NCBI GenBank assembly: GCA_944990035.1
Contig: CALYLX010000026.1
Coordinates: forward strand, 124,001 to 188,000
Length of the DNA: 64,000 nt
Source of the DNA: Clitopilus passeckerianus
Taxonomy: Eukaryota; Basidiomycota; Agaricomycetes; Agaricales; Entolomataceae
Direction of reading: 5' to 3'
The position numbers and the translations under genes were made by a program. A model generated the notes under the pieces. That model did no database searches. It saw only the letters and a list, made by a program, of their open reading frames with translations, and was not told where the DNA came from. This document shows positions 3,334 to 32,540 of the stretch, piece after piece. The number at the start of each line of letters is the position of its first letter. Within the stretch, counting starts at the first letter, position 1.

Positions 3334-5166
3334 TTAATCAGATCCAGCCCTACGAGCACGCCTTGCATGATATTTACGGCGCTCCTCTCTATCGTACCGC
3401 TCCAACGTTGCCTTGCGAGTGTGGGAGTGGAACCACGCGGCAGTGCGAGTTAGGAAGTTCTTGCACGAAATGCAACGGACAAAGATGTGGTCGAATTCCT
3501 CCTTTGTGACCCCGGTTTTATCCGTCTCGGCACGAAGGTTGAATTGACGAATGAGATCACTCAGGTTCTGTGAAGAGATGTCAGCATTGCCGAGCAGGCG
3601 GTTACGGCCACCGAAAGGGCATTTGTGGCGCTGCACCGGCAGCTCCAAACTCATGAACCTGTGGCAGCGGAAGCACCGTCCACAAAGAGCAGCCAGCTCT
3701 TGTTCGTCGATACCGGCATCGGGATCCCAACTGTCAACCCGATGCCAAAGCTCAGCAAGGTCCGGAACGTGGTCAGGGTGAAAGGTGGGTACATGGACGT
3801 CTACATTCACAAAGTTAGTCAAGGTTTCATCATGTACCAGTATTGAATGATAACTCACCGTTGCCGACAGAAATTTCCTTGAAGTAACGCGCCCCAGTTT
3901 CAACAACATCGACTTGACGCTCGACTGCATCCATCCAATCAGTCCATACAGTTTTTGAAAGGGGAACAGCGAACTTACTAAAGTATCTGTGGTCGCGATG
4001 AGGCGCAAGGTCAAGTTCACGCCGAGTGGGTGCATCCATCCTGACCAGGACCTTCTTGTTATTGATGGTGGTATAAATAAACGCGTTTCTCCCTTTCTTC
4101 TTGCGGTAACCGGAGTCAGACACTAATGCCGTTGTTGTGAGTGCTCATTGCGCCAAAAAAAAAACAGAGCGTGTTGTCTTACAATCATCAGAGCTCGAGT
4201 CGTCACGGCGAGGCGCACGTTCGTCGAGCTCAGATTCCCGGTCGTGCGTACCATCGTCCTCAACAACCTGGTAGACTGCAAGGAAATTGGTCAGTACATT
4301 GTTCCTCCAAGTTCAAGAGATGATGTAAATCACGTACCAGTTTCAGTGCCACTGTCTCCGCCAGCATCGTCGTCATCCTCTTCGCCTCCTTCCACGTCGT
4401 CTTCATCGTCTTCGCCATTGGCTTCAGCCCCTTGGATGGGGTTGGTGGTACTGGGAGGCGCCGACGAATACAACGTGATGGGTTGAACCTGTTACAGTTA
4501 CCTTGGATACGCACCCGGACTCTTTTTCCTTTTACTCATCTACCATTACTATCCCCCGCCCCGCTTACGTTTATACGATTACTCAGTATTGCTGCGCATT
4601 ACTCATCCCTTTAGCTATGATTACTCAGTATTCTCACGATCGTGGGATACTTGTACTATATTTACTTACCATGACTCGTCGTGACTCTTACTCTGACTCA
4701 CTCCGAGTCATACTTACTTTTGCTTACTTAGCATTGCTGCGCAATGCCCAACCCTTAGCCCTACTCTTCATGTATAAATACTTTCACGCTTTCGGTCTTG
4801 CTTCCCCAGCTTGACCTAAAAGCCTATACATCGCTATTTGCTTTAACTTCGACTCGCTCGATTACTCTCGCTCGTCTCTACAAAGGCTGGTAGAGGACTA
4901 AGCAGCTGAACTCTTGATACTTGGTTGAGCACGTAGCGATACTAGCTTAACAGAACCCTCACCCCGCCACTGGGAGTAAAGGTTGCAAAGCGAGCCTGGC
5001 GCAGGTCGTCGACAGTGAGGTGGGGGATACGGGCTGACGACGGGTGGGATCTTGCGGCGGGATAGGGTGAAGATCTACCCACAAGTATGGGTGTTCCCCG
5101 ATGACGCACGGGGGTGGAACGATGATGAGCTGGGCTCGAGGAATCACGGACAGCGTAAGGTGGCAT
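3334..5166 (-). pseudogene. Cys/His-rich hypothetical protein gene split by a solo LTR
   Basis: Removing the LTR at 4490-4952 and one copy of its 5-bp duplication rejoins two open frames. Codon 71 from the upstream part leads directly into the downstream part, in frame. The pieces on the minus strand are 5166-4953 (upstream exon half), 4484-4338, 4275-4183, 4122-3979, 3924-3859 and 3800-3334, about 376 residues before insertion. An acidic middle (GEDDEDDVEGGEEDDDD) is followed by a C-terminal region with CGRCFRCH, then CPFG, then CISCKNF with two later His, which looks like paired zinc sites. The family is unknown. With the LTR in place the frame stops inside the insertion, so the allele is probably null unless a downstream start is used. 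Confidence 0.7.
4490..4952. mobile_element. solo LTR (463 bp) with 5-bp target-site duplication
   Basis: The element begins TGTTACAG and ends CTTAACA, so its termini form the short inverted repeat TGTTA/TAACA typical of retrotransposon LTRs. It is flanked by perfect direct copies of GAACC at 4485-4489 and 4953-4957, the 5-bp target duplication expected of Ty3/gypsy or Ty1/copia integrases. Inside are a TATA-like stretch (ATGTATAAATA near 4770) and a CT-rich 3' part. No internal retrotransposon genes are present, so this is a solo LTR left by recombination. The intact duplication suggests it is fairly recent. Confidence 0.85.
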
Positions 5167-6271
5167 ATTAAGGATCGAGAAACTGAGCAAAGCAGAGGAA
5201 ACAGACAGCAGGTAGCTGATATCGAATCCTGGCAGACATGCTGAGTCTTTTATAGGTTCTCGCATACCACATATTTCCCAAACGAGTTAGGCGGCACTCT
5301 CGGCTCTGGGGCCAGACGCGAAAGGGTCATTGTCGCAGAGTTTGACATCCCAGGTGATAGGCCTGAGAAGGATACGGCGCGTTGGGCAAGTGTCTTCGTG
5401 CAACTATTCCCCGAGTGATGGGCTTACTGGCGAGTCCTAGAGCATGAGCAACGCCACTTCTCAGACGACTTGCCCATGAAGAGGCTTTTCCCAACGATAA
5501 TGCCGTTTTTCCACCAAGTCCTGACCAACTCAAAGTCAAACGCGGTTGGTGAGGCTCCTCCGATCACCATTTGGCGAAGTGGTTATTAACAACCGTACCT
5601 TACCGGAAAAGGTAACGAAAAGCCCAAAATGGTCCAATTTTGCAAGGTCGCCGTCGGGGAAGCACTGCCGTCTGGCCTACCATGACATCAAGGTAATTTT
5701 GGGGTTCTGCGCAAAGGGTCGCCATTCAATGTTTTGGCTGGTAAGGGTTCCTCGGTTACTCAAGTGCGTCAGTCACCAAATGAGGCATGAGTCGACTAAA
5801 AAGGCAATGCAAAGCCTATTCTGAGCAGGTTTTTTCGTGCTTGAACATCTGCACAGTGCATGGCGCACGCTACTGACTCTAAGTATTTCCCGCAAATTGA
5901 CCATCCTAATCATTGACATTTCGAATCTGTTTAGTCGTCACCTCGTTGCTCTTCGTTCCAATAAACGTATTATCAGCAGCGGCCTCCTTCCGGCTACAAG
6001 AAGTAGGTTCCCAAAGGCCAGCATGCGGCGCCGTAAATTTCGCTTGCTATGGTACGACCAAAATTTCTTTTTCTCCGGTATTCTCTAATCGGAGATCTCC
6101 ACTGCAGGCTCAATGAACTTGACCAGCCGGCGCCAGACCATTTCTGGTTTGGGATCACCTTTTCTGAGCACGCACTACTCCGATCACATGTCGGGAGACA
6201 AGATATAAAAACCATTGGGCCTAGGGAACCAAGGCTCGTCGAACTCCTTCCCTCTTTGCTTTCAACCCGTC
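5167..6271. other. intergenic, about 1.1 kb, no gene seen
   Basis: It lies between the divergently oriented LTR-split gene and the DUF6698 gene. Open frames here are short, lack plausible splice partners and have no recognisable domain. It probably contains both promoters. Confidence 0.4.
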
Positions 6272-7697
6272 ATGCCAGATAGCGACCAAGAGAATCAAAC
6301 TCCAGAGCCACGACGTCAGGCGCCATACGCATTAGAATTGACTGGCCGTAAGAAAGCGTGAGTCTCCCCATGGATGGTCTTGAACCTCCTCTGAGTTCTC
6401 AACCCCAGGTGCCAGACCGATCCTCTAGTTCATCATGGCCGTCACTTTGGTCGGACTATCCGCGCCATGACCAACATCTATGTTCTCCTCACAAATGGTA
6501 TGCTTAGATATGGCGACAATCAATATGCCTTGGATGACCCCGACCTACCACTTGAGTGAGTCCTTCAGAGCATGTGCCTGAATACCCCAACTAACTTTTC
6601 TCACTCAGGGAAATTCGCGAGAACAAGGTATTCAAAGAACTCTTGACACTGGTACCTGGCTTGGAGGAACGCCTGCTTGGTGGAGATTGCTCAGAGGAAC
6701 ATTTAAGAATGATCGCGGATGCTGTAAGTATCTTCGGTTGGCTATCATTTGCTCGACTAACCCTTCTTAGCTCCAGAAAGGTGCATCAGGAGCCCGTGCA
6801 GATGATACGAAGACCCTAAAAGGCGCCGTGATCGACTTCATCTCCACACCCGGTATCCCTCTGAACCCACCTCTTTCGCGTAGCGTCAAGGTTGATCGAG
6901 GTTTCCACCACGAAGTGACGGGTGCCCTTCTCTGCCCAGCTAATCTAGATTGGAACAATCCCGAGTATGTCCCCTCGTTCTAGCTTATTCAAGTTATTCA
7001 CGCGCTGCTCTTAGAATAAAGGAGAAGCTGAGAGGCGGTGACTACATTGTCACCGGTGACCAGTGGCCGATCTTCCTATACAAGGACTATCGATATGATT
7101 CTGAAGATCCTTGGAATGGCCTCCTTCGCAGCAAGATTCTAATATCCGTAAGTTAGTTCTTATTCTTTAAATCTCTGATTCGTAGCTAAATGGGGCTACC
7201 CTCTACGCAGGCCTACAAGCATGTATTTACCTCCCCAAGCTCGGTTGAAAGGGAACCAAAGTCTACCCGCTCCGGAAATGCAAGAATTCACGGCATGCGT
7301 CAAGTGACTCCCGCTTCCCTCGCGTATGTAGCAACTCAGGTATGGTTTCTTATGGTAGCCAAATGATGTTTCTCATCCATCTGCAGCTTCGATTCGCATT
7401 GTCGTCATCGTCTGTCTTCTCAAGAACCGACAAAGCCACGGATTCCCAGAGATTTTACACCAGCATCGTTGACTTCTTGGAGGATCCGGACGAGAAAGCG
7501 GAGGTTTCTAATCTGATATTATTCTGGAACCGGTAAAGCACTGGCTTCCATCTAATTTTATCGTATGCTTACACATTTCTAGACAAATATTTCCCGAACA
7601 CGCCTGTACCAAACGTATGTTGACGAGGGATAGTGTTCTGTCAAAATTGAAGGCAAAGCGGGCAGCATTGAGGGCGTCGAATTCCCCCGTTGCGTAA
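6272..7697 (+). CDS. DUF6698 domain protein, eight exons
   Basis: Exons at 6272-6357, 6409-6555, 6609-6723, 6771-6964, 7015-7147, 7211-7339, 7387-7532 and 7583-7697 join in frame to about 354 residues. The translation carries the run of motifs I associate with DUF6698, a family expanded in mushroom genomes: GRHFGRTIRAM near the start, VPGLEERLL, KGASGARADDTKTLKGAV, FHHEVTGALLCP, GDQWPIFLYKDYRYD, TSPSSVEREPKSTRSGNA, IHGMRQVTPASLAYVATQ and a final FWNRQIFPEHACTKR. Length and motif order look complete, with no stop or frameshift. The biochemical function of the family is unknown. No signal peptide or membrane segment is visible. The family name comes from memory of its motifs, not a search. Confidence 0.85.
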
Positions 7698-15747: not shown

Positions 15748-18700
15748 ATGGAGCCTGCACGCCGCCAGCCCACGAGAATGTCCACGAGCACCAGCAGCAG
15801 TGGCAATTCGTCGTATAATCCGGTTCATAGCCCTCGTGATATTCGAGACAAGGTTCATCGCTTCCGCGTTCTGATCATAGGTCGCGCCAACGCCGGGAAG
15901 ACGACTATCTTGAAGAAACTCTGTAACGAAACTGAGGACCCTGCTATCTATGACGCTACAGGGTACCCTGTATGACTCTGCATTTCGTTTCCCTACACGG
16001 TTTGCTAAGATATTTCAAGGTTAACCTCGCTGCTCTTGACCCTTCCGACGAGGTCAGCTCCTCATAACCCTATATTTTGCTGGGGCCATCTCATAACCCA
16101 CCTTGTGTACAGCGCGGTCTTCACGATATCAACTATGCAATGATATTCCGAAGCAACCCAGGATTTGTGTTTCATGACTCCCGTGGCTTTGAGGCAGGCG
16201 CCAACGACGAGCTTAAGAAGGTTCAAGCGTTCCTCGACAGACGCAACCGTACTACCAATCTCCAAGATCGTGTTCACGCCATCTGGTACGGTCGTTCTTT
16301 GACTCAAGTGAAAAGTGCAGTCGACCTCATTTACCTGCTTGTAGGTATTGTATCCCTCTCGACGACGCTCGTCCCATCCAGAAGCCCGAAATCGAGTTCT
16401 TTGAGAAATGTGGAACTGGCGATAGTAGGTATTCCCTGCGCCCTCTTTATATCCGCTCATTGGGTCCCCAAAGTTCCTGTCATCGCCGTTTTCACCAAAC
16501 TTGACTCCTTGGACGACAAGGCATTCGGTCGCATTCTAGATGATAATGACGACGTTGACCAGAATACGGCACTCAAGATGGTACCCGAATACTCGCAGCG
16601 TCTCTTTGACGAACTTCGTCCGAAGCTTCGAATCTTCAGGGCTACGTATCCGCCACGTTCTCATATTGGTCTCCGTGGTAAAGACTCATTTTTCGGATAC
16701 ATTAAGGCTCTCTGACTCAAGCTTTCCTGTAGCCATGCATTTGCCGGAGGCAAACTGCCTTGCTCTCTTGGAACATACGGGAATAGCTCTTGATGACGAA
16801 ACCTTACATCTGATGTTTGTTTCTGTGCAGAGATCTATCTTGAGCCAATGCACCCGATTTGCATTTGAGTAAGTTGGGCAGTATATACATGATGACCCGA
16901 TCTAATGCATGCTTGCAGGAGATTACTGACACATACGCGTAATTTTGACAAGAATAGACATTTGACAGTGAAAGAGGCACAGACCATGATTTTTTGGTAT
17001 TACCCACAGCTTATTGTGAGTATTTCTGCCCTCCTGTTGAAGCGTTTGCGTTAACGAGGGTCCATGCAGGAGGTATCTGTTTAGCCGAACTAGCTATGAC
17101 TGACTGGCCCTAATTCCACATGACAGGATGTGAGTATGTTTCGCCTGTCAGAATTGGGTGTGTCTGACACAGAGTTTTCTAGCTGGTGAGAATGCTCTTC
17201 GACATATAGGTTAATGCTAATCTATCTCAGATTGTGAGCACTTTTCTCCTTTCCAGAGCGACCATCCGTCAAATTTTAATGCATTTTCCAGGAGGTTACC
17301 CAGGTAGGTTATTGACTTCATACAACTCCAACAGGCTGCTAAATTACAGTCTCTAGATGGTAGAGTATTGGGTTTTCTTATTGCAACATAGACTCATTGC
17401 GAGGCGAAAGGACGAAAGTATAGAGCTCGAGGTGAGGTGATTAGCTTATGTGTTACCATGTGCTAACAATGGCTAGATGGTACCGTATTTTGCAATCGTG
17501 TTCGGAAGCAAGCACTGATGCTTGAATGTTCAACGACTTAATAGGAGGTAACGCTTCACATTTCTTCGTGATTAATCGACATACTAACCGCCAGGCCTAG
17601 GCAAAAGAACGGGTAAGTTTGCCTAATCACTCTCCGTCCACGGTCGTACTCTGAGCGCATACATCTTAGAAAGTGGGTAGTCCTTCAAATACGAGGAGGC
17701 GGTGATGTCTGACGTCTATTAGCTGGTATGGCTTATTTGATTGTGTCTCGAGACTCCCTCTCATTCATAGGCTTCAGCAAGTAAGGATTTCCCCTCGTAA
17801 AATCCACCGAATTGAACTAAATAGTTGTGGGTTCTACAGAGGGTTAGTCCGAATCGTGAAATTTTCATCTAAATAGGCTGAAGAGAATTGTTCGTAGCTG
17901 GTATGTGTTTTTCCCTACACCTAGCACGCTTCAGTCAGAACTAAACTACCTCTAGCGTGTAAGCGATCTCTGGGTGGAATAACGCACTAGCTGAGGCATA
18001 TTTTTAGAGGGTAAAGTAGTTATCTGTTACGCTTATACAGCTTACTCACCTGCCGTAGTTGGTGCGTAACACCTTTACGCTGGACAAAACGACCGTCTGA
18101 AGTCACCTATGATTGCTATAGATTGTACGAACAGTTTTACCTTCTCCGTCCATCCTGGTTTAACTCCTCGCATAATAGATGGTATGAGCTGTCCTTGCTT
18201 CATGGATCGACGTTCTTCTTATTGGTGTAGGATGTGAGTGTCGTCATACACCGTCTGGTGGTAGCAAATGAACTGACGACTCTCTGTGTGGCTTAGCATG
18301 TAAGTCACCACTGGTAGTGTTGTTCTCAATGGCATAACTTTGACTTTATATCAAGACAGCAAGTTCTATTCCTGCCAACTACATACTTATGCACCGGCTT
18401 ACATGCTTTTAGAGCGTAAGACCCCCGAACGCTTCGAAGCTTAGGCTCCTATATTGACCAGCAGCCCACTTAGGAGGTACGCGTGATAGTAACTTCACAG
18501 CACGAGAGTTACTTCTAGCTGTTCAGGGAGTAAGTCTTTTATCTAGTGAATACCTTGTTCGAAACTCATTATTTAAATATCGTGCTAGTGGGTAAGGTTA
18601 TTGTCCACTCAGATTTGACTGAAGCACTCAAGTAGAATACACAGAAGGTGAGTCAAAGCACCATAGGGCCTCAACTACGGGGATAACTCACCCACCCAGG

Positions 18701-19601
18701 ATGTGAGCCCCCCCTGATCTATCTTTGACCATATCTCACACATAAACTATCAAGCTTGTGAGCCCCTCCATCTCGGTCCCGCTGATTCGTTTTTTGCTGA
18801 TAACCATACCCAGAAAGTGAGTGGTTACCCGCGATACCATGGGCAAGTCTAATATGAACAGCCTGTAAGTCGCTGGAACGTGTTTAGTTATTACCGCTTA
18901 CGCCTTATTTTTAGTGGGTGAATAAACACGATATTCTTTCATTTTTATGGCTCAACTCTTCCAATAGCGGGTAAGTCGTTTACTCAGAGACCGTATAGAC
19001 ATTGAAGTTTGATGGTTTACTTGAAGGATCTAAGAATCGAGCGCCTACGTGAAGCGGAATCCGTTCAAGCCAGACTCGTTGTACTAGTAAGTTTCAGTCA
19101 AACATCGCATTTTGATGAAGCTGACTGACTATTTAAGGCGCATGGTGTATTCCGCTTGTCAGGAATCCAACTCGCAGAATTTGCAACAGGTGGGGCAACT
19201 TTACAGTTGTCCTCTCACACTCCAACTATTTGATTGTTCTAGCTCTTGGAATTATTGCAGACCATTCGTTCTTCATCAAGCAACGAGATCGATCGCTCGA
19301 TTTCAAGGACTCCATTGAGATTGCGATTCAAGATTTCTTGGATTCACCTCAATTCCGCGACTCCTCCCGGGCAATACATACCGTCTTTGACGAGCTTCAG
19401 TCTCAACGCCAGCCTTCGTCAAGCCTGTTCAAGATAGGACAAAAGTCGAAGGATGAGGCTGCCAAGGTGACAAGAGACCTCATACTTGCAATGGGGCAGA
19501 TCGTTCTTGACCATCGGATCGATACGACAGATGGGTACGCCATAGGGTCCTTGACCAAATCACGACTTACAACCCCACCTCATAGATGGCTACCAACGTG
19601 A
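15748..19601 (+). CDS. septin/AIG-like G-domain protein with an extreme micro-exon tract
   Basis: Seven normal exons (15748-15969, 16020-16052, 16113-16285, 16345-16424, 16474-16677, 16733-16868, 16919-17015) encode a G domain. They show a P-loop GRANAGKT at residues 45-52, a switch-II-like HDSRGFE at 106-112, HAIWYCIP near 140-147 and the base-specificity motif FTKLD at 176-180. A 63-residue segment follows from 33 tiny exons (17070-18970, separate entry), then exons 19027-19086, 19138-19189, 19243-19534 and 19586-19601. The total is 44 exons and about 517 residues. The family is common in mushroom genomes and usually annotated only as a G-domain P-loop NTPase. If read without the tract, translation stops at TAG 17082-17084. 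The C-terminal part is helical and has no clear membrane anchor. The gene is tail to tail with a paralogue. Confidence 0.8.
17016..19026 (+). other. micro-exon tract: 34 introns and 33 exons, 30 of them one codon long
   Basis: From the donor at 17016 to the acceptor ending at 19026 the sequence reads as introns of 45-65 bases with consensus donors (GTGAGT, GTAAGT, GTATGT and similar) and AG acceptors. Most have a CTAAC, CTGAC, CTAAA or TTAAC-like branch site. Between them lie single codons, two 12-base exons (17292-17303, 17601-17612) and one 75-base exon (17357-17431). All junctions are phase 0. The peptide is charged and helix-like (for example KLQRLRRLIMDHQSEG) and runs on into DLRIERLREAE of the next exon at 19027. 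A few boundaries have alternatives, such as GAG alone instead of the first 12-base exon, without changing the overall pattern. Seen in sequence; splicing itself is inferred. Confidence 0.75.
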
Positions 19602-19775: not shown

Positions 19776-22627
19776 CTACCGTGCCATAGAAGCTGCCTCA
19801 AATATGGCGTGTGTATTGACCCCAGACTCTTCGCCTCGGCGGAGCCGTCGCCAGTCGTTGGTGGAATTCCTCGAGTCCCAATCTTCGTCTGCGTCCCACT
19901 CGTTGACACTTGAGCCATTGAGACTGCTTCGGTACGGAAGTACTTCCGCGGAATCGATGATATGCGCGTGAAGCAGTTCCTCGATTCGGCTTAGTGTTGT
20001 ATCTGGCCCCATATCGAGACGTAGTCCATCCCGAACGTGCTGCTCAATCTTGAAGAGCAGAGCCTGCTTTGCGTTTGATTCGGCATATGCCTGCACCGCT
20101 ATCTTGATAAGCCGACGGGTAACTGGCTTCCCGGGGCTACGGAGAGTTTGGAGCCAGAAGAGGTTCTGCAACACGAGACTGAGGTCGATGATATAAGTCA
20201 TCAGACGTTCCAGTACGAATGACCTGAATATTGCGAGTTAGCCTTCAATGTAAAAAATAGCAACGGGAACTTACGTATGCTGATACACGTCATTCACCCA
20301 CTTAGCAAATACGAGTGCGGCTGCGATTGGTACCACAATCGGCGCCGCTACGGTGGCAGCTGCAACACCCGAGAGAATGCCTGCTAGTCCAGCAACCATG
20401 GACACGCCTGCTGGTCTGTAATGCCATCAGTATGGCAGAAACTGCGCCAGGCAAAAAAATTGCAACTTACATGACTCGGTGGGCAGTTCGGACGATGACG
20501 GGGTTTTCCTCCTTATCGACCAGTTTTGAAATCAAACCCTTGAATTCACGACTAGACAGGAACTTCGAAAGGTCAGTGGCAATGTATGTCTAACGGAGCC
20601 TCCCCTGCGCACGTTATTTGGGTCATTGAGTCGCCAGACACCGATGATATCTGCATGAATCACGTCCACGCATTGAAGAAGTGGTCTTCCGTGGAAAGCA
20701 AGGCTACGTGCAAGGCGGGCCCAATATTCTAGAATAGCGAGAGGATTCATCACAAGTTGGGGAGAACCAGCGGAGTTAGCTTACTTCGTCTCCCAACGCT
20801 GCTCTCGGAGTCAAATGATGACCATCACAAGGTGAAGAGAGCAATGCTCACGCAATCGATGCCTTGATATTCAGTACTGGACTGACACGCTGTGCCATGG
20901 CGGACACGATTGAGGCGTCAGCGAAATAATCATTAACACAATCGTAAGTCATTTGGACAAGGTTTGCCAGATTCCTCTCGTGGTTGTCCTTCGCTGCGAA
21001 AAAAATCAGAATAAGACCTCATGAGGTCAAGAAATTAGCTCACAGGATACATAAATGTGGGATATCTTGTTCTGAGTCCTTTCCTCGAATGATTTGATCC
21101 ATCGCATGTGCAGTTGCCCTTGTGCATGGTCATCCACAAGAATGTCAATGTCTGCTTTGGCCATTCCCTCGAACACATTTGCGCCCATGTTTCGCCGTAT
21201 ATTGGTCAACAACTGGTCATACTTGGTGAATACAACGATGATGGGCACTAAGAGCTGCGTCAACGGTACGCATCAGTAGGATCTTGGAAGAACGGTACCT
21301 TTCCCAAGCTCCCCTCTCAGCTTGCGATCGAGGAACTCTTCCACCCCTTTCTCCAATAAGCGACCGCCGGTGACAGGTATAGCGATGCAGAGCCTGAAGT
21401 AAAGTATGATTAGGCTACTGAAAGGCTTGGTATACGGTCGGACGCTCTGGCTTACCAGATGGCGTGAAGGTTATCTCCTATCTGCTCCCTATTGCTTCGA
21501 CCAAGAATAAATTTCCGCACAATATCGACGTTCTCCACGTCGCCTTGCTCGAAGCCCATGCTATCGTGTAGGACAAAATGAGGGTTATCTTCAGAGAAAA
21601 TCTCATGATTGATGTCGGCATAGCCTGGCTCGTCCTCGGCTACAATCTGAGGGATTCAGTCAGCATAGGCAAGCAAAAACGCCCTTGGTGACATACAGCA
21701 TCATCCACCCCAAAAGTTTTATTGATCAGTAGGGATTTCCCGGCTCCTGTCTGCCTAGGTTTGCACAGTGGTTCCAGTCGAAAGCTTGCAGTATCCATAC
21801 CTTTCCCATAACTAGAATCCGGAATCTGGCGTAGATCCTTGAGTAACGAACAAAGGAGCTTATTGCTCAAACCAACTCACCGTGGGCAATGCTCTAGAAT
21901 TTCCTCCGTCGTGGGTTTCATTATAGACGGTGGGGACCCCTGCAATGTATCCTGGCGGTGCAGACTGTCAGGCACAGAGCGAACACTTGCTCTGGAGTCA
22001 AGGGGCTAGTGTTTCCCATGAGTTATACCCAGTTGCAAAATCTCCAGAGATACTCACAGGTGCAATGAGTGCTGGTTGCGAACCCTTGATATGAACGGTG
22101 AGGTCATGGAATGACCTCTTCCAAGCTGATAAGCCAGAGTCAACGACGAACTACAGGGATACGCCAATGTAAATCCCACCTAATTCATGTTTGCGTATGG
22201 CAGCCACCAGTTCATCAACAGAAACCTGTATCGGTTCTGTTATCCGTTTGGTCCCCATAAACTTGGACTGGGTCAGGTGGACATGGAGTGCGATATGTGA
22301 TCCAGGAGATAGGGGCCTAGCCATGTGGTTAGTTTATCGACCTCCTCCAGAGGTTACATTAACTTACCGAGGAGGATCTAGCTTAAGGCGAGCATTGAAG
22401 CACAAATTCCCGCTTCCTTCCTTGTCCCATTTTGCAGGAATAATATCGCCATCGACGAATAGTTCCGCAGCCTTGATACTTTTATTAGAGATGGAAGGTA
22501 GCTCAATTCGAATAGCTAATGTCGGGGTCAATTAAGGCGTAATTGGATTAATTGACGACATACAATTAATTTGTAGAGCATCTGCAGGCAGCGACAGAGG
22601 AGGTTGCAGAGGCGAGTCAGACGACAT
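19776..22627 (-). CDS. G-domain protein, paralogue of the neighbour, 16 exons
   Basis: Sixteen exons join in frame: 22627-22564, 22515-22368, 22316-22208, 22150-22058, 22005-21881, 21837-21801, 21750-21697, 21646-21456, 21393-21299, 21247-21044, 20993-20852, 20798-20785, 20728-20613, 20562-20471, 20415-20275 and 20223-19776. They give about 690 residues. An N-terminal domain of about 180 residues looks beta-rich (IRIELPSISNK, LHVHLTQSKF) and could be C2-like. The G domain follows: P-loop GKTGAGKS at 191-198, split by an intron, then HDSMGFE at 237-243, HAIW and FTKYD at 312-316. A long hydrophobic Ala/Val-rich stretch at about 496-531 may enter a membrane. A 14-base exon at 20798-20785 is the smallest here; the gene has no tract of single-codon exons. 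Confidence 0.82.
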
Positions 22628-27888: not shown

Positions 27889-29703
27889 GTTGTTGATCTA
27901 AAAAAAGCAAAATGCCTGAGAGTGAGTAAGAAGCCGGCAGGCGAGGACAGGAAGCGAACGTACGATGTTGTGAAGTAAAGATGAAGGCAAACTGTAGGGT
28001 TTGTTCTGTCTATAGCCCTCAGGGCATGGCGGGTTTTATATAGCTTTCCGCTTGTGCCCTCCTGCTGTTGTGTTCGCGTGGTCCGTTGATTTCGTCGATG
28101 AGATATCGTAGAAGCTCAAGCCTTAGGGGACTTGACGAGCATCCTGGGAGGAAGTTGTCCCCGGTTTCGTAAACCACTTTCAAAATCGTATACCCGAGAT
28201 GAACCTGGGGTTCCGCTCAAACGGAATCAAGCTTTCTACGTGTCGAGAAGGAGTTCCATGCAAGGTGTCAAAGTGCCTTCTTCTCCACAGAACCTGTACT
28301 CCAAGTAAACGCCAAATAACATCCACGTTCGATTGCTTAATCCTTCCCAATTCAGAGTATCAACCCAAGGCTTTTGGCGAGGAATTCTACGCCCAAAGCG
28401 AGAAATGCATAGAGCGCTGAGCGGAAACAAATACTGGCCGATGAATTTGAGGTACTTATCTTTGTCGCAGAGGTTCCAGCTGCAACGACAAGAAGTGCCA
28501 CGGCAATGTACTATCCGCGTGTGTCCAAGTTGATGCTGCCGGGTTCGCATAACCACCAATCCCCAGAGATCCGCGGCCTTGGACAGTCGCCGTAACGATA
28601 ACCAGCTTCCAGAATCAAAAGCACCCCTCTAGAACCTAATCTCGTATAGTTCTTTCAAGTTCTAATCCACCGGGTACTTCATGTGAGGTATTCCTGAGCA
28701 TAGACATGGACCATGAACGTAAGGTGATATCGGAGAAGCCACCAATGGTGACCCTCAGAAGCAAATATTCTCTGGCATTGAGAATGGAAAAGATGGTTGG
28801 TGGTGGAGACCGCAAGGTGCGGACGACCCATCATCCTGGGGGCTGACTAATCTCGTTCTTGACCTACTTCTGGCAGCGAACCCTCATAGGAATTGACGAG
28901 CAATCTAAGAAGGCGTTACAGAAGGCACTGACTTCGGTTGAAAGTTCTGCCTCTTGCAGTCAAGAAAGGGTTATATTCTCTTTTGAGCCCAGTTATCACT
29001 GGCAATACTTACTCCTCCTAGCTCCCATAGAGAATCAAAGCCGAACCATAAGTAGTCTGGCACCAAAATTCGAGAAACGGCCGTTGTGGTATACACATTC
29101 GTCACTATACTGGGGAAAGTGTAGATGACAGCCGTTTCCATCAGAGTTACCGGTTTTCAAATTAAAATACTATCCGGTCAGATTAAAGTCCCGGTGCGTT
29201 TTGATTTAATTTTACGTGAACAGCGTGTTCGAGAACCTCTCGAGACTCTCGAAGACCGAAGCAAATTCGAATTCCCGTCACGAACACCTTGTGAAACTAC
29301 TTGAACCGTTCAAGCCAAAACTCTCGAAGCGGGTTGAATGGAAGTCGAACACGAGCCTGACAGGCCAACTGAGAGCGAATCGTACTACGAAGGTGGATTT
29401 TAAGTTGCTGACAGGGAAAAGGAGGGGCTTGGAAGAGATATTGGGGAGAAGGACTCATTTGTTACTGGCACATGGTAGTCACGAATAGACTCTTGTTCCT
29501 CTACTAGCGTGGGTTGTCTTCCGCCTTTGTGCTCCAGTAGCGTGGGTCATCAACGTACAAGCAAAAAGGCGATAGAGATGGTCATATTCTAAATGGAATT
29601 TCATAGTGAAGAAACAAGGTTCTCCAGCTATATAGTGGCGTAAATGAATTAAATCTACATAGCGTGGCTGAATGTCTGGAAAGCTTCTCTCTGGAAGGAT
29701 GGA
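27889..29703. other. intergenic between family members A and B, about 1.8 kb
   Basis: No gene is supported. Both flanking genes are on the minus strand, so this includes the promoter of A. The open frames here lack splice partners and family motifs. Confidence 0.4.
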
Positions 29704-30394: not shown

Positions 30395-32540
30395 ATCAAC
30401 AACCTAAAAAGCGCGAGGGTGAGTGAGATAACGGCATGATAGATGAAAGTAACAGACGATATTCAAAGATGAGCAAAAAACAGACAAAAGTGAGGGGGCG
30501 AGTTATGCGGGCAGCCTGGCGGTTTTATGGCTCTTCGTCGAATCAGTGACTAAGCCTTTCTATTTCTGTCGGCATACGTAGTTAGCAGTATCTTCTCGTT
30601 CTAGCTTGGCAGCATGGTAGGTTCCCTTTCCCCAGTGAAGGGGTTGACGCGAGGATCAGACTCGGAGCACCCTATTTTCCGTACGGTGTCAAAGCCGAAA
30701 TGAGTATTGATGAGTATCGTGCTTGTGACTGCGAGACTATGGCATGGAAGCCTGGTTATTCGCGCCGTGATATGTTGTCATCCCTTTTGAATGTCTCCAA
30801 GTGTGGAGAATACGAGGACGAGGAGAGTACTATTAGCCGAGATGATGGCAACCGTCTATGGACAGTTGCTTTCCCCCAGAATGTGTTCAAGGCGGTTGGC
30901 CCCTTGACAGAATCATATTAAAGCCTTGGTATTCCTTAGAGGGTCGGAGCAGCCGCGATTGCCGCTACCCCGTTATTCTTCGCCCTTCTTGAAGAAAGGG
31001 GACATCGAAGGACAACAATGATCGTGACTCGGACTTGTTTGCCAGGAACTTTAGGGCCGGCTCTAACGCGCGAACAAACTCCCACGGTCAACAGTTGTGG
31101 ACTCGTTGTAAATCCGCCTGGACTGTCCTCTGCAGGTTGGGGCATAGACCTCTTCTGGAGACCGTAGGTACTCGCCGATTGGGTGAGGGTATTATACCGT
31201 TTCTGTCCCGGTAACTCCGGTAACCCGGCTGCTGGATACTGGACCAACTGGAGCCATCCCATCTTTGACTTCGTTGCCTTCAAGGAGATAGTCAACCTCA
31301 TGGCATAAACTTTCAGCTAAGTAGCCCCTGCACGTCCTGGGCATACAGTGTTTTGCATACAGTCGAATTCCTCTCTATAGCCGTCTAAGTACATAATTCC
31401 TATTATTCTATAGCTTTTCGGGTCCACGCAATCGGTAGGCGGGGAGTTATGTAGTACTTCGCTCCCTTATTCAGTATTCTATACTTTTTTGGGCGATTTG
31501 GAGCCCCATCAACCCATAACTTGACCTAATTTCAGCCTCATTTGGCAAGAACTTGGCATGACCCTGCACTATTTTTGGATATTATCAACATTCGTCGGAC
31601 ATGACAGCGTATTTCTGAGCATATCTAACCTAAATCCGGCTCATTCACCCGTATAGGGTGGCATATACCGACAAATCAAGAGATTACATAGTATTTAAAT
31701 TCCATTTGTGGACTAAAGGGACCGTGGAAAATATTGTGCAAGTACATACTTCCTGATGATACATACTTTTTGGGTCCACGGAACGTTATAGAATAAGAGG
31801 AATTCGACTGTATTGTTCTGCAGTCATTTTTCTACAGTTGACTGCCAAGCCTTTTCTAAGCTGCTACTGCGATGATTGTTCACCGGACCTCGCCCTCGTA
31901 GAGCGGACGACGATGGCGTCACGTTCGGCGGACATTCGGCTCGAAAAAAGACCTTTTTTCTATAATCTGGGGGCCACGAGTTCTAAAAACCTTGAAATCA
32001 GATGTCAATTCAGCCAAAGAACACGAAAAATAATATCGATCGAATAACATGGTGAGATTGCTCAAGATCCGTTTCCGAAGCCTAGGCCGCTCTTAGCGTT
32101 ACATCATTCATCTCGCTTAGGTCGCCAGCACAAAATTGACTGCAGAACAAAATGCAAAACACTGTAAGTCTCGAAATGAGCAATTCCCGAGCTGACCTCA
32201 ATTATGTGCTCTTCTATGTTCTTGGCAGGCATGTCGCCGGATTCATTGGTTTCCTCCGAGTCATGAAGGGAGGGTCCTTCCTTGCCTCCTTACTTCTGCT
32301 GTCTTGGTATACATATTTCACACATAAATCTGTCTAGCGAAAGATGAAATAGTCTGCATTTTACCCATCGCCATTCAACGCTAATTAGCGCCCTGGATCG
32401 ACGAGCATGCCGTCCATCGGAAGCGAGACTATAGCGTCGGCGGTAAAACGCTGCAAACACGAAGAAAAAAGCGATATAAGAGGCCCCAGCATTTCCCGTT
32501 CACCTTGAGAATCCGATTCTCTCAAACCTACATTGGCGAC
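30395..32540. other. intergenic, about 2.1 kb, containing a MITE
   Basis: Apart from the inverted-repeat element at 31360-31810 I see no gene. Open frames near 30700 and 31838 are short and featureless. Confidence 0.4.
31360..31810. mobile_element. MITE with pogo/Fot1-like ends, 451 bp
   Basis: The left end CAGTCGAATTCCTCT is repeated in inverted orientation at the right end (AGAGGAATTCGACTG), a perfect 15-bp terminal repeat, and each end is flanked by TA. TA duplication and CAGT ends are typical of Tc1/mariner, pogo and Fot1 elements. The subterminal regions repeat a CTATA and GGGTCCACG motif in both orientations. No transposase frame is present, so this is a non-autonomous element. Confidence 0.8.

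What the first reader, a model, noticed from the sequence alone, without database searches (positions are those of the whole stretch)
17016..19026. A run of 30 single-codon exons in one gene
After the G domain ends at 17015, the sequence reads as 34 introns with 33 exons between them, 30 exactly 3 bases long. Single-codon exons start at 17070, 17127, 17183, 17231, 17477, 17545, 17670, 17723, 17778, 17840, 17898, 17956, 18008, 18059, 18122, 18179, 18231, 18297, 18360, 18413, 18474, 18527, 18589, 18645, 18700, 18755, 18814, 18862, 18915 and 18968. The other three are 17292-17303, 17357-17431 and 17601-17612. AG-NNN-GT alone would occur by chance about once per 256 bases, so roughly 8 times here. 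The case rests on regular 45-65 base spacing, good extended donors, branch-like motifs, phase 0 throughout, and an unbroken charged helical peptide that enters an open downstream exon in frame. Exons this small are far below what most splicing models handle, and adjacent spliceosomes could not assemble 3 bases apart at once, implying ordered removal. I know of no described gene with such a tract.
Basis: partly seen in the sequence, partly recalled or inferred. Interest (0 to 1): 0.96.

Follow-up and report, generated by a model that had tools for sequence, protein, structure and literature searches.

The report
Gene with thirty-one one-codon exons
A gene for a GTP-binding protein, likely from a mushroom-forming fungus, contains 31 three-base units that are predicted to be separate one-codon exons; nearly all their codons and splice signals are kept in a second copy of the gene while the DNA between them has drifted, and a related gene holds a tandem array whose repeat unit reads as one intron plus one codon, which suggests how such stretches likely arise.

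Summary
At 17016-19026, AG-NNN-GT units are strongly enriched at a spacing of exactly 3. A syntenic second copy in the same assembly (C123) keeps the codons (6 of 93 sites differ; 5 of 6 changed codons synonymous) and the splice-dinucleotide sites (139 of 140), while intron bodies differ at 24%. Sixteen of 35 introns have non-3n length differences; no exon has an indel. Corrected model: 35 introns, 34 exons, 31 of them single codons (18360 becomes ACA 18356-18358 with a GC donor; 17357-17431 is likely ATG + intron + 21 nt). All splices into one ORF: G domain, 46 tract residues, C-terminal helical part. A paralogue carries, at the homologous place, 38 tandem 69-bp units, each a near-identical 66-bp GTGAGT...CTGCAG intron plus one highly variable codon, so the tract likely arises by tandem duplication of an intron+codon unit. 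Splicing is inferred; no RNA was available. Not unprecedented: truffle NACHT-ankyrin genes are reported with dozens of 3-bp exons (Iotti 2012, seen only as cited). The GTPase host in a likely basidiomycete and the intron+codon satellite appear new.

The parts
15748..17015 (+). G-domain part of the gene: exons 15748-15969, 16020-16052, 16113-16285, 16345-16424, 16474-16677, 16733-16868, 16919-17015 (945 nt, phase 0 at 17015)
   Evidence: (Pfam MMR_HSR1 23.8 bits, cut-off 21.9)
17016..19026 (+). Microexon tract: 35 introns of 45-65 nt, 34 exons, all multiples of 3 and in phase 0 in the curated model
17070..17233 (+). Single-codon exons 17070 GAG, 17127 GAT, 17183 CTG, 17231 ATT
   Evidence: identical in the second copy
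17292..17303 (+). 12-nt exon (EVTQ); one synonymous difference in the second copy
17357..17359 (+).
   Evidence: the decode prefers 17357-17364
17411..17431 (+). 21-nt exon (DESIELE; DESIGLE in the second copy)
   Evidence: the decode prefers 17424-17431
17477..17547 (+). Single-codon exons 17477 ATG, 17545 GAG
17601..17612 (+). 12-nt exon (AKER), identical in the second copy
   Evidence: the decode starts it at 17595
17670..18299 (+). Single-codon exons 17670 AAA, 17723 CTG, 17778 CAA, 17840 AGG, 17898 CTG, 17956 CGT, 18008 AGG, 18059 TTG, 18122 ATT, 18179 ATG, 18231 GAT, 18297 CAT
   Evidence: 17840 not in the decode
18356..18358 (+).
18413..18970 (+). Single-codon exons 18413 AGC, 18474 GAG, 18527 GGA, 18589 TGG, 18645 AAG, 18700 GAT, 18755 CTT, 18814 AAA, 18862 CCT, 18915 TGG, 18968 CGG
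19027..19534 (+). Downstream C-terminal helical part: exons 19027-19086, 19138-19189, 19243 to about 19534 (3' end not settled)

Best explanation
The tract at 17016-19026 is predicted to be spliced as 35 short introns separated by 34 in-phase exons, 31 of them one codon long, which would add a 46-residue segment between the G domain and the C-terminal helical part of a fungal GTPase. The conserved codons, conserved splice dinucleotides and drifting intron bodies are shown; the splicing is inferred. The likely origin is repeated tandem duplication of a unit made of one intron plus one codon: a paralogue in the same genome carries such an array in near-identical form (38 units of 66+3 bp), and in the window the same architecture has likely aged until its introns no longer resemble each other. 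Because every unit would be phase 0 and add exactly 3 nt, gain, loss or skipping of a unit would change the protein by one residue without a frameshift. The segment likely forms an exposed, fast-changing part of the protein. A recognition role, as proposed for the codon-sized exons of truffle NACHT-ankyrin genes, is an inference by analogy.
For: Spacing spectrum and chain tests. Second copy: single-codon sites 6 of 93 differ (third positions 5 of 31, second 0 of 31, first 1 of 31), 5 of the 6 changed codons synonymous, against 364 of 1495 intron-body sites (Fisher p 2e-5). Donor dinucleotides 1 of 70 sites changed (the GC/GT), acceptor AG 0 of 70. 16 of 35 introns have length differences not divisible by 3 while 0 of 34 exons has an indel. 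At donor +3, 6 of 7 substitutions stay A/G. Five of six codon changes hit the last exon base, the one that donor recognition would most protect (recalled), so the constraint looks coding rather than splicing. Decode without a length prior. Branch-site scores 5.1 against 5.2 in the gene's seven other introns and 3.6 in shuffles. 27 of 35 introns would bring an in-frame stop if retained, and only 17360-17410 is both 3n and stop-free. Everything splices to one stop-free ORF of 496 codons in both copies. Paralogue array at the homologous position: mean diversity 0.56 at the three codon sites against 0.024 over 66 intron sites; GTGAGT and CTGCAG invariant in 38 of 38 units. Transcript-like homologues P0011, P0041 and P0083 carry an insert of unalignable sequence at this position; in a homologue's model that segment is the longest low-confidence stretch (298-317 under pLDDT 50).
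Against: No RNA evidence. Other-species homologues show no alignable tract sequence, and a search with residues 280-496 found 0 of 1030 candidates at E <= 1. Donor positions +3 to +6 together differ at 28 of 136 sites, nearly as much as intron bodies. The triplets just outside the codons are also conserved (4 and 8 differences, against 12-31 further out), so closeness to splice sites explains part of the codon conservation. Tract introns show no clear similarity to each other (mean -4.5 against -5.0 shuffled) or to the array intron, so the tandem origin of the window tract itself rests on the paralogue only. In the array, intron site 31 is as variable as the codon (0.62). The array's path to the paralogue's C-terminal part could not be decoded in frame without changing the second of three flanking codon exons. 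The decode prefers four non-codon exon choices (8, 8, 18 and 2 nt) at the less certain places. Two exon choices used the second copy and were then scored against it; without 18356 the count is 5 differences in 90 sites, 4 synonymous.
Confidence: 0.85

Rival explanations
1. The tract is one long intron or a decaying region: the transcript joins 17015 to 19027 (or stops early) and the codons are not used; the units are relics of formerly spliced exons or cryptic sites.
For: Annotated models of several Suillus homologues lack any insert at this place (P0068, P0059, P0106); no homologue with matching tract codons was found.
Against: Third-position, synonymous change pattern and 0 of 34 exons with indels between copies require coding use until recently; tract donors score as high as those of the gene's seven other introns (6.3 and 5.9); transcript-like homologues P0011, P0041 and P0083 do carry an insert here.
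Confidence: 0.08
2. The codons are real exons but inclusion is deliberately variable: skip splicing yields many isoforms and the diversity of the peptide is the function.
For: In the curated model all 34 exons are 3n and phase 0, so any subset keeps frame; truffle NACHT-ANK codon exons are described as alternatively spliced in papers that cite Iotti 2012.
Against: Codons are under purifying selection between the two copies, which fits regular inclusion; no isoform data.
Confidence: 0.25
3. For the paralogue only: the 69-bp array is not introns but an in-frame 23-residue protein repeat with one hypervariable residue.
For: 69 = 3 x 23 and the 38 units translate without a stop (874 aa); by eye, from memory, the unit resembles a leucine-rich repeat; a second site (31) is also variable.
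Against: Pfam at E <= 10 gives no repeat family; the only hit is bMG1 (31.3 bits for the whole protein, over its cut-off 26.4, but no single stretch passing). Of 10 variable sites in the 66 bases, codon positions 1/2/3 of that frame hold 2/5/3, no sign of protein constraint (my count). Perfect GTGAGT, CTGAC and CTGCAG surround the codon in all 38 units; a microexon tract sits at the same place in the window gene.
Confidence: 0.12

Closest known systems
Codon-sized mini-exons of NACHT-ankyrin (nank) genes in the truffle Tuber melanosporum (Iotti et al. 2012; not read, seen only as cited in passages of PMC9815663 and PMC4986451)
   Same: Dozens of 3-bp exons in one gene of a filamentous fungus, in a nucleotide-binding protein; described as affecting the C-terminal recognition part
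   Different: Here a GTPase (Pfam MMR_HSR1) without NACHT or ankyrin hits, related to Agaricomycete proteins; an intron+codon tandem array in a paralogue; alternative splicing not tested here
Introner-like elements of fungi (PMC4457414, passages read)
   Same: Multiplication of near-identical introns
   Different: Copies are head-to-tail inside one gene; the unit's DNA was found only there in this assembly
[quoted passage not shown]
   Same: New intron copies arise by local tandem duplication across an intron/exon boundary
   Different: Here the duplicated unit is a complete intron plus exactly one codon, repeated 38 times
Isolated ultra-small exons: 3-bp exon of Drosophila homothorax (PMC7392893, passages), 1-nt exon of Fusarium CYP621A (PMC12940212, passages), 1-nt exon of Arabidopsis APC11 (PMC4674806, search listing only)
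   Same: Exons of 1-3 nt can be spliced
   Different: Single exons, not a run of 31
Immunity-related GTPases (Irga6/IIGP1) and bacterial dynamin-like proteins
   Same: Among the top fold matches of a full-length homologue model (E from 3e-5)
   Different: TM-score by query length 0.18-0.30 in the first 13 rows, 11-13% identity; relation unproven

Membership tests
Fungal genes with runs of codon-sized exons (truffle nank type) | Many consecutive 3-bp exons bounded by splice signals | tested here: met
   (DNA evidence only)
Fungal genes with runs of codon-sized exons (truffle nank type) | NACHT domain and ankyrin repeats | tested here: not met
   Searches (E <= 1, first 315 aa of the predicted protein only; 18 homologues, E <= 0.01): GTPase and other P-loop families, no NACHT or ankyrin
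Fungal genes with runs of codon-sized exons (truffle nank type) | Alternative splicing of the codon exons | not testable with these tools
   no RNA data
MMR_HSR1-type GTPase | G domain with P-loop above the curated cut-off | tested here: met
   23.8 bits against 21.9; 18 of 18 homologues match at E <= 0.01
Immunity-related / dynamin-like GTPase | G domain packed on a helical domain of that fold | tested here: inconclusive
   GM4951, Irga6/IIGP1, IniA and a bacterial dynamin fill ranks 1-13 at TM-score (query) 0.18-0.30; model of a homologue (P0011), not of the window protein
Introner-like element | Near-identical introns in unrelated genes | tested here: not met
   11 of 11 matches of a 401-base array piece lie within C152:459500-462173 (the tool skips very common words); window tract introns not clearly alike
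Spliceosomal U2-type introns | GT(GC)-AG ends, branch site, fungal length, removal from RNA | tested here: inconclusive
   ends, branch and length met; removal from RNA not testable

The most novel reading that the evidence does not exclude
A gene-internal satellite whose repeat unit is one complete intron plus one codon acts as a residue-by-residue diversity generator: unequal exchange adds or removes single codon exons without frameshift, the isolated codon is free to change, and the spliceosome stitches 30-40 one-codon exons into a variable recognition segment on an immune-like fungal GTPase. The window shows the aged form and the paralogue on C152 the young form.
Probability: 0.35. Interest if true: 0.95.

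Novelty: new variant of a known kind. Interest (0 to 1): 0.86.

Why it matters
If the tract is spliced as predicted, 35 introns must be removed at mostly 3-nt spacing, which tests how neighbouring spliceosomes avoid each other and how exon marks are placed on exons far below any footprint. The paired young and old tracts make the origin of codon exons testable by sequencing related strains. It would also show that codon-sized exons, reported in truffle NLRs, occur in a different protein class and likely in another phylum. Some gene predictions seem to read into the first tract intron or to omit the segment, so more such genes may be hidden.

Tried and rejected
Chance matches: rejected. A window tract of recognisably similar introns: no similarity clearly above shuffles. 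A 23-residue coding repeat in the paralogue: no repeat family hit, variable sites not third-position biased. Long-term balancing selection as the cause of the 18-22% divergence over the tract: windows outside it are mostly 2-10% (four reach 11-19%), and 4-fold sites differ at 21 of 138 in the G domain, 4 of 9 in the single codons and 7 of 58 downstream, so unconstrained introns explain it more simply; not excluded. First decode gave no path because the acceptor threshold was too strict. The column-shuffle control (0 of 30 shuffles had any valid path) is too easy to be informative. A search with the window's residues 280-496 found nothing; one with residues 255-420 of P0011 found 8 proteins, itself included. 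Paper searches: (9 of 10 allowed; up to 20 rows listed each, of 3,697); a mushroom long-read annotation paper that I recall as treating microexons was not found by them. Splice weights in the decoder were set from memory, not taken from a call.
Full report
WHAT IS THERE. The window lies in a 64.8-Mb, 160-contig assembly. At 15748-19534 (+) there is a GTPase gene. Seven exons (945 nt) encode a P-loop G domain (Pfam MMR_HSR1, 23.8 bits, cut-off 21.9) and end in phase 0 at 17015. The next 2.0 kb read as 35 introns of 45-65 nt (the six introns upstream are 49-60 nt) with 34 exons between them. The ORF then continues at 19027 into a helical C-terminal part that homologues share. The tract adds 46 residues: E D L I EVTQ M DESIELE M E AKER K L Q R L R R L I M D H T S E G W K D L K P W R.

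MORE THAN CHANCE. AG-N(k)-GT in the tract peaks at k=3 only: 38 against 5-19 at other k. The longest chain of such sites with a good donor at 42-85 bp spacing is 15; shuffles of the tract reach 3 (500), shuffles of the rest of the window reach 4 (100), and the window outside the tract reaches 2. Of the 55 loci held (259,594 bases, many overlapping) and the window, chains of 4 or more occur only in pieces of this tract, its second copy and the C152 array; loci fetched later were not scanned.

THE SECOND COPY. Contig C123 aligns with window 9022-30825 at 90% over 21.8 kb in conserved order, so I take it as the other haplotype of a two-nucleus genome (inference). Over 5.5 kb around the gene it is 87% identical. 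One search compares the tract. Single codons: 6 of 93 sites differ (CTG/CTT, AGG/AGA, ACA/ACG, CTT/CTC, CGG/CGA synonymous; AAA/GAA Lys to Glu), third positions 5 of 31, first 1 of 31, second 0 of 31. Intron bodies: 364 of 1495. G-domain exons: 52 of 945. Downstream exons: 7 of 112. Upstream intron bodies: 36 of 262. Donor dinucleotides: 1 of 70 sites; acceptor AG: 0 of 70; donor +3 to +6: 28 of 136. Eighteen of 35 introns differ in length, 16 of them by a number not divisible by 3, and none of the 34 exons has an indel. Triplets directly before and after the codons show 4 and 8 differences of up to 93; triplets 6 to 30 bases away show 12-31. Donor +3 substitutions are A/G exchanges in 6 of 7 cases. 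Five of six codon changes fall on the last exon base, the position that donor recognition would favour most (recalled), so this looks like protein-coding constraint. Two of the 31 exons (17357, 18356) were chosen with the second copy in view; without 18356 the count is 5 of 90.

UNSUPERVISED DECODING. It disagrees with my curated model at 17357-17431 (8+8 instead of 3+21), 17595 instead of 17601, and 17825-17826 instead of 17840. On the window alone the same weights give 25 three-base exons at penalty 12 and fewer at penalty 15.

THE PARALOGUE. A search with the first exon found a third place, C152:463188-463286. There, directly after the homologous last G-domain exon (...FPMLV| against ...YPQLI|), lies a 69-bp tandem array (38.8 copies, 95% matches). 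In the right orientation each of 38 units is NNN + GTGAGTGCTTC...CCACTGACC...CTGCAG; 39 AG-NNN-GT sites follow at exactly 69, about C152:459547-462169. The codons are TTG 16, GAA 9, TCG 5, TTC 3, TTT 2, GAC 2, GAT 1. Diversity is 0.44, 0.59 and 0.63 at the three codon sites against a mean of 0.024 in the intron, and the most variable adjacent triplet is the codon. One intron site (31) is just as variable and another (23) moderately so; I cannot explain site 31. Identical units recur most at lags 12 (9 of 26) and 13 (6 of 25), so blocks of about a dozen units were likely also duplicated. After the array, sites reading TAG|CAT|GTCAGT, CAG|AAT|GTGTGC and TAG|CTT|GTGAGG look like three more codon exons with unrelated introns. 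The decoder returns all three only at the lowest of four penalties, and the frame into the C-terminal part stayed unsettled, so this gene could be damaged there.

A RIVAL READING OF THE ARRAY. The 69-bp unit has no stop in the frame of the codon and would encode a 23-residue repeat. Pfam finds no repeat family, only bMG1 over its whole-protein cut-off with no stretch passing; the ten variable sites of the 66 bases show no third-position bias (2/5/3, counted), and the splice signals are invariant. I give this 0.12.

POLYMORPHISM. The 11-kb stretch C152:454661-465554 with the array gene and a second family member has no counterpart in the 30 kb of the allelic contig C146 that I compared, and the array gene's DNA is found once in the assembly. 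It lies beside an element with inverted repeats of about 720 bp that recur on several contigs.

RELATIVES. The predicted protein finds 793 proteins at E <= 1e-3 among the 7998 candidates scored (120 listed); the named ones listed are from genera that I know as Agaricomycetes (recalled). G domain and C-terminal part align; the segment between does not. Annotated models P0001, P0003 and P0005 continue after WYPH(I/V)L with N/L then Val-Ser, as a retained GTGAGY donor would read; this is a guess about DNA I could not see. P0011 (543 aa on 1848 bases), P0041 (462 aa on 1592) and P0083 (426 aa on 1438) look transcript-derived (inference from contig length) and carry unalignable inserts here. P0121 (325 aa on 2295 bases, origin less clear) is 78% identical to P0011 but differs in length and sequence just after WFPHI, while annotated Suillus models P0068, P0059 and P0106 lack the insert. 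A structure model of P0011 (pLDDT 84.1) has its longest low-confidence stretch there (298-317 under 50). Fold search puts GM4951, Irga6/IIGP1, IniA and a bacterial dynamin in ranks 1-13, at TM-scores of 0.30 or less: a hint only.

HOW IT LIKELY WORKS. Shown: the unit architecture, its conservation, and the array. Inferred: that the introns are removed; that removal of neighbouring introns is sequential or alternating, since two spliceosomes cannot sit 3 nt apart; that tandem duplication of intron+codon units built the window tract; that the peptide is an exposed variable segment; that its role is recognition. Retention would be costly: 27 of 35 introns carry an in-frame stop, and only 12 are 3n long.

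KNOWN OR NEW. Dozens of 3-bp exons are on record for truffle NACHT-ankyrin genes (PMC9815663 and PMC4986451, passages read; the primary paper, Iotti et al. 2012, not read). Isolated 1-3-nt exons are known (PMC7392893, PMC12940212, passages read). Our gene lacks NACHT and ankyrin hits, so I file it as working like those genes but not as a member. In nine paper searches, of which I saw at most 20 rows each, I saw no report of a tandem intron+codon array or of such a tract in a basidiomycete; the library holds only open-licence papers.

Noticed in passing
window 19800-22550 (-): A second member of the same GTPase family, without a chain of codon exons, lies next to the gene (match at 21437-21625), with a long alanine/valine-rich hydrophobic segment (around 20274-20426) that looks membrane-inserting.
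   Followed up: partly
G000:C152:454661-465554: An 11-kb stretch with the array gene and another family member is absent from the compared 30 kb of allelic contig C146, beside an element with inverted repeats of about 720 bp found on several contigs.
   Followed up: partly
L005 (reverse strand) 4332-6953, unit position 31: One intron site (G/T/C) in the 69-bp array is as variable as the codon exon; no explanation.
   Followed up: no
L005 (reverse strand) 4332-6953: The array is stop-free for 874 codons and reads as a 23-residue repeat that resembles a leucine-rich repeat by eye; Pfam finds no such family.
   Followed up: partly
whole genome G000: 87 NACHT matches of 87 scored (257 candidates), all over the curated cut-off: a large NLR-like repertoire; whether any has codon exons was not checked.
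   Followed up: no
window 21022-21521, 28522-29521 and 30522-30825: Further peaks of divergence between the two copies (11-19%) against mostly 2-10% elsewhere outside the tract.
   Followed up: no
P0001, P0003, P0005 (Tephrocybe, Tricholoma models): Annotated proteins continue with Val-Ser right where the tract starts, as if a GTGAGY donor had been translated; possible hidden tracts.
   Followed up: no
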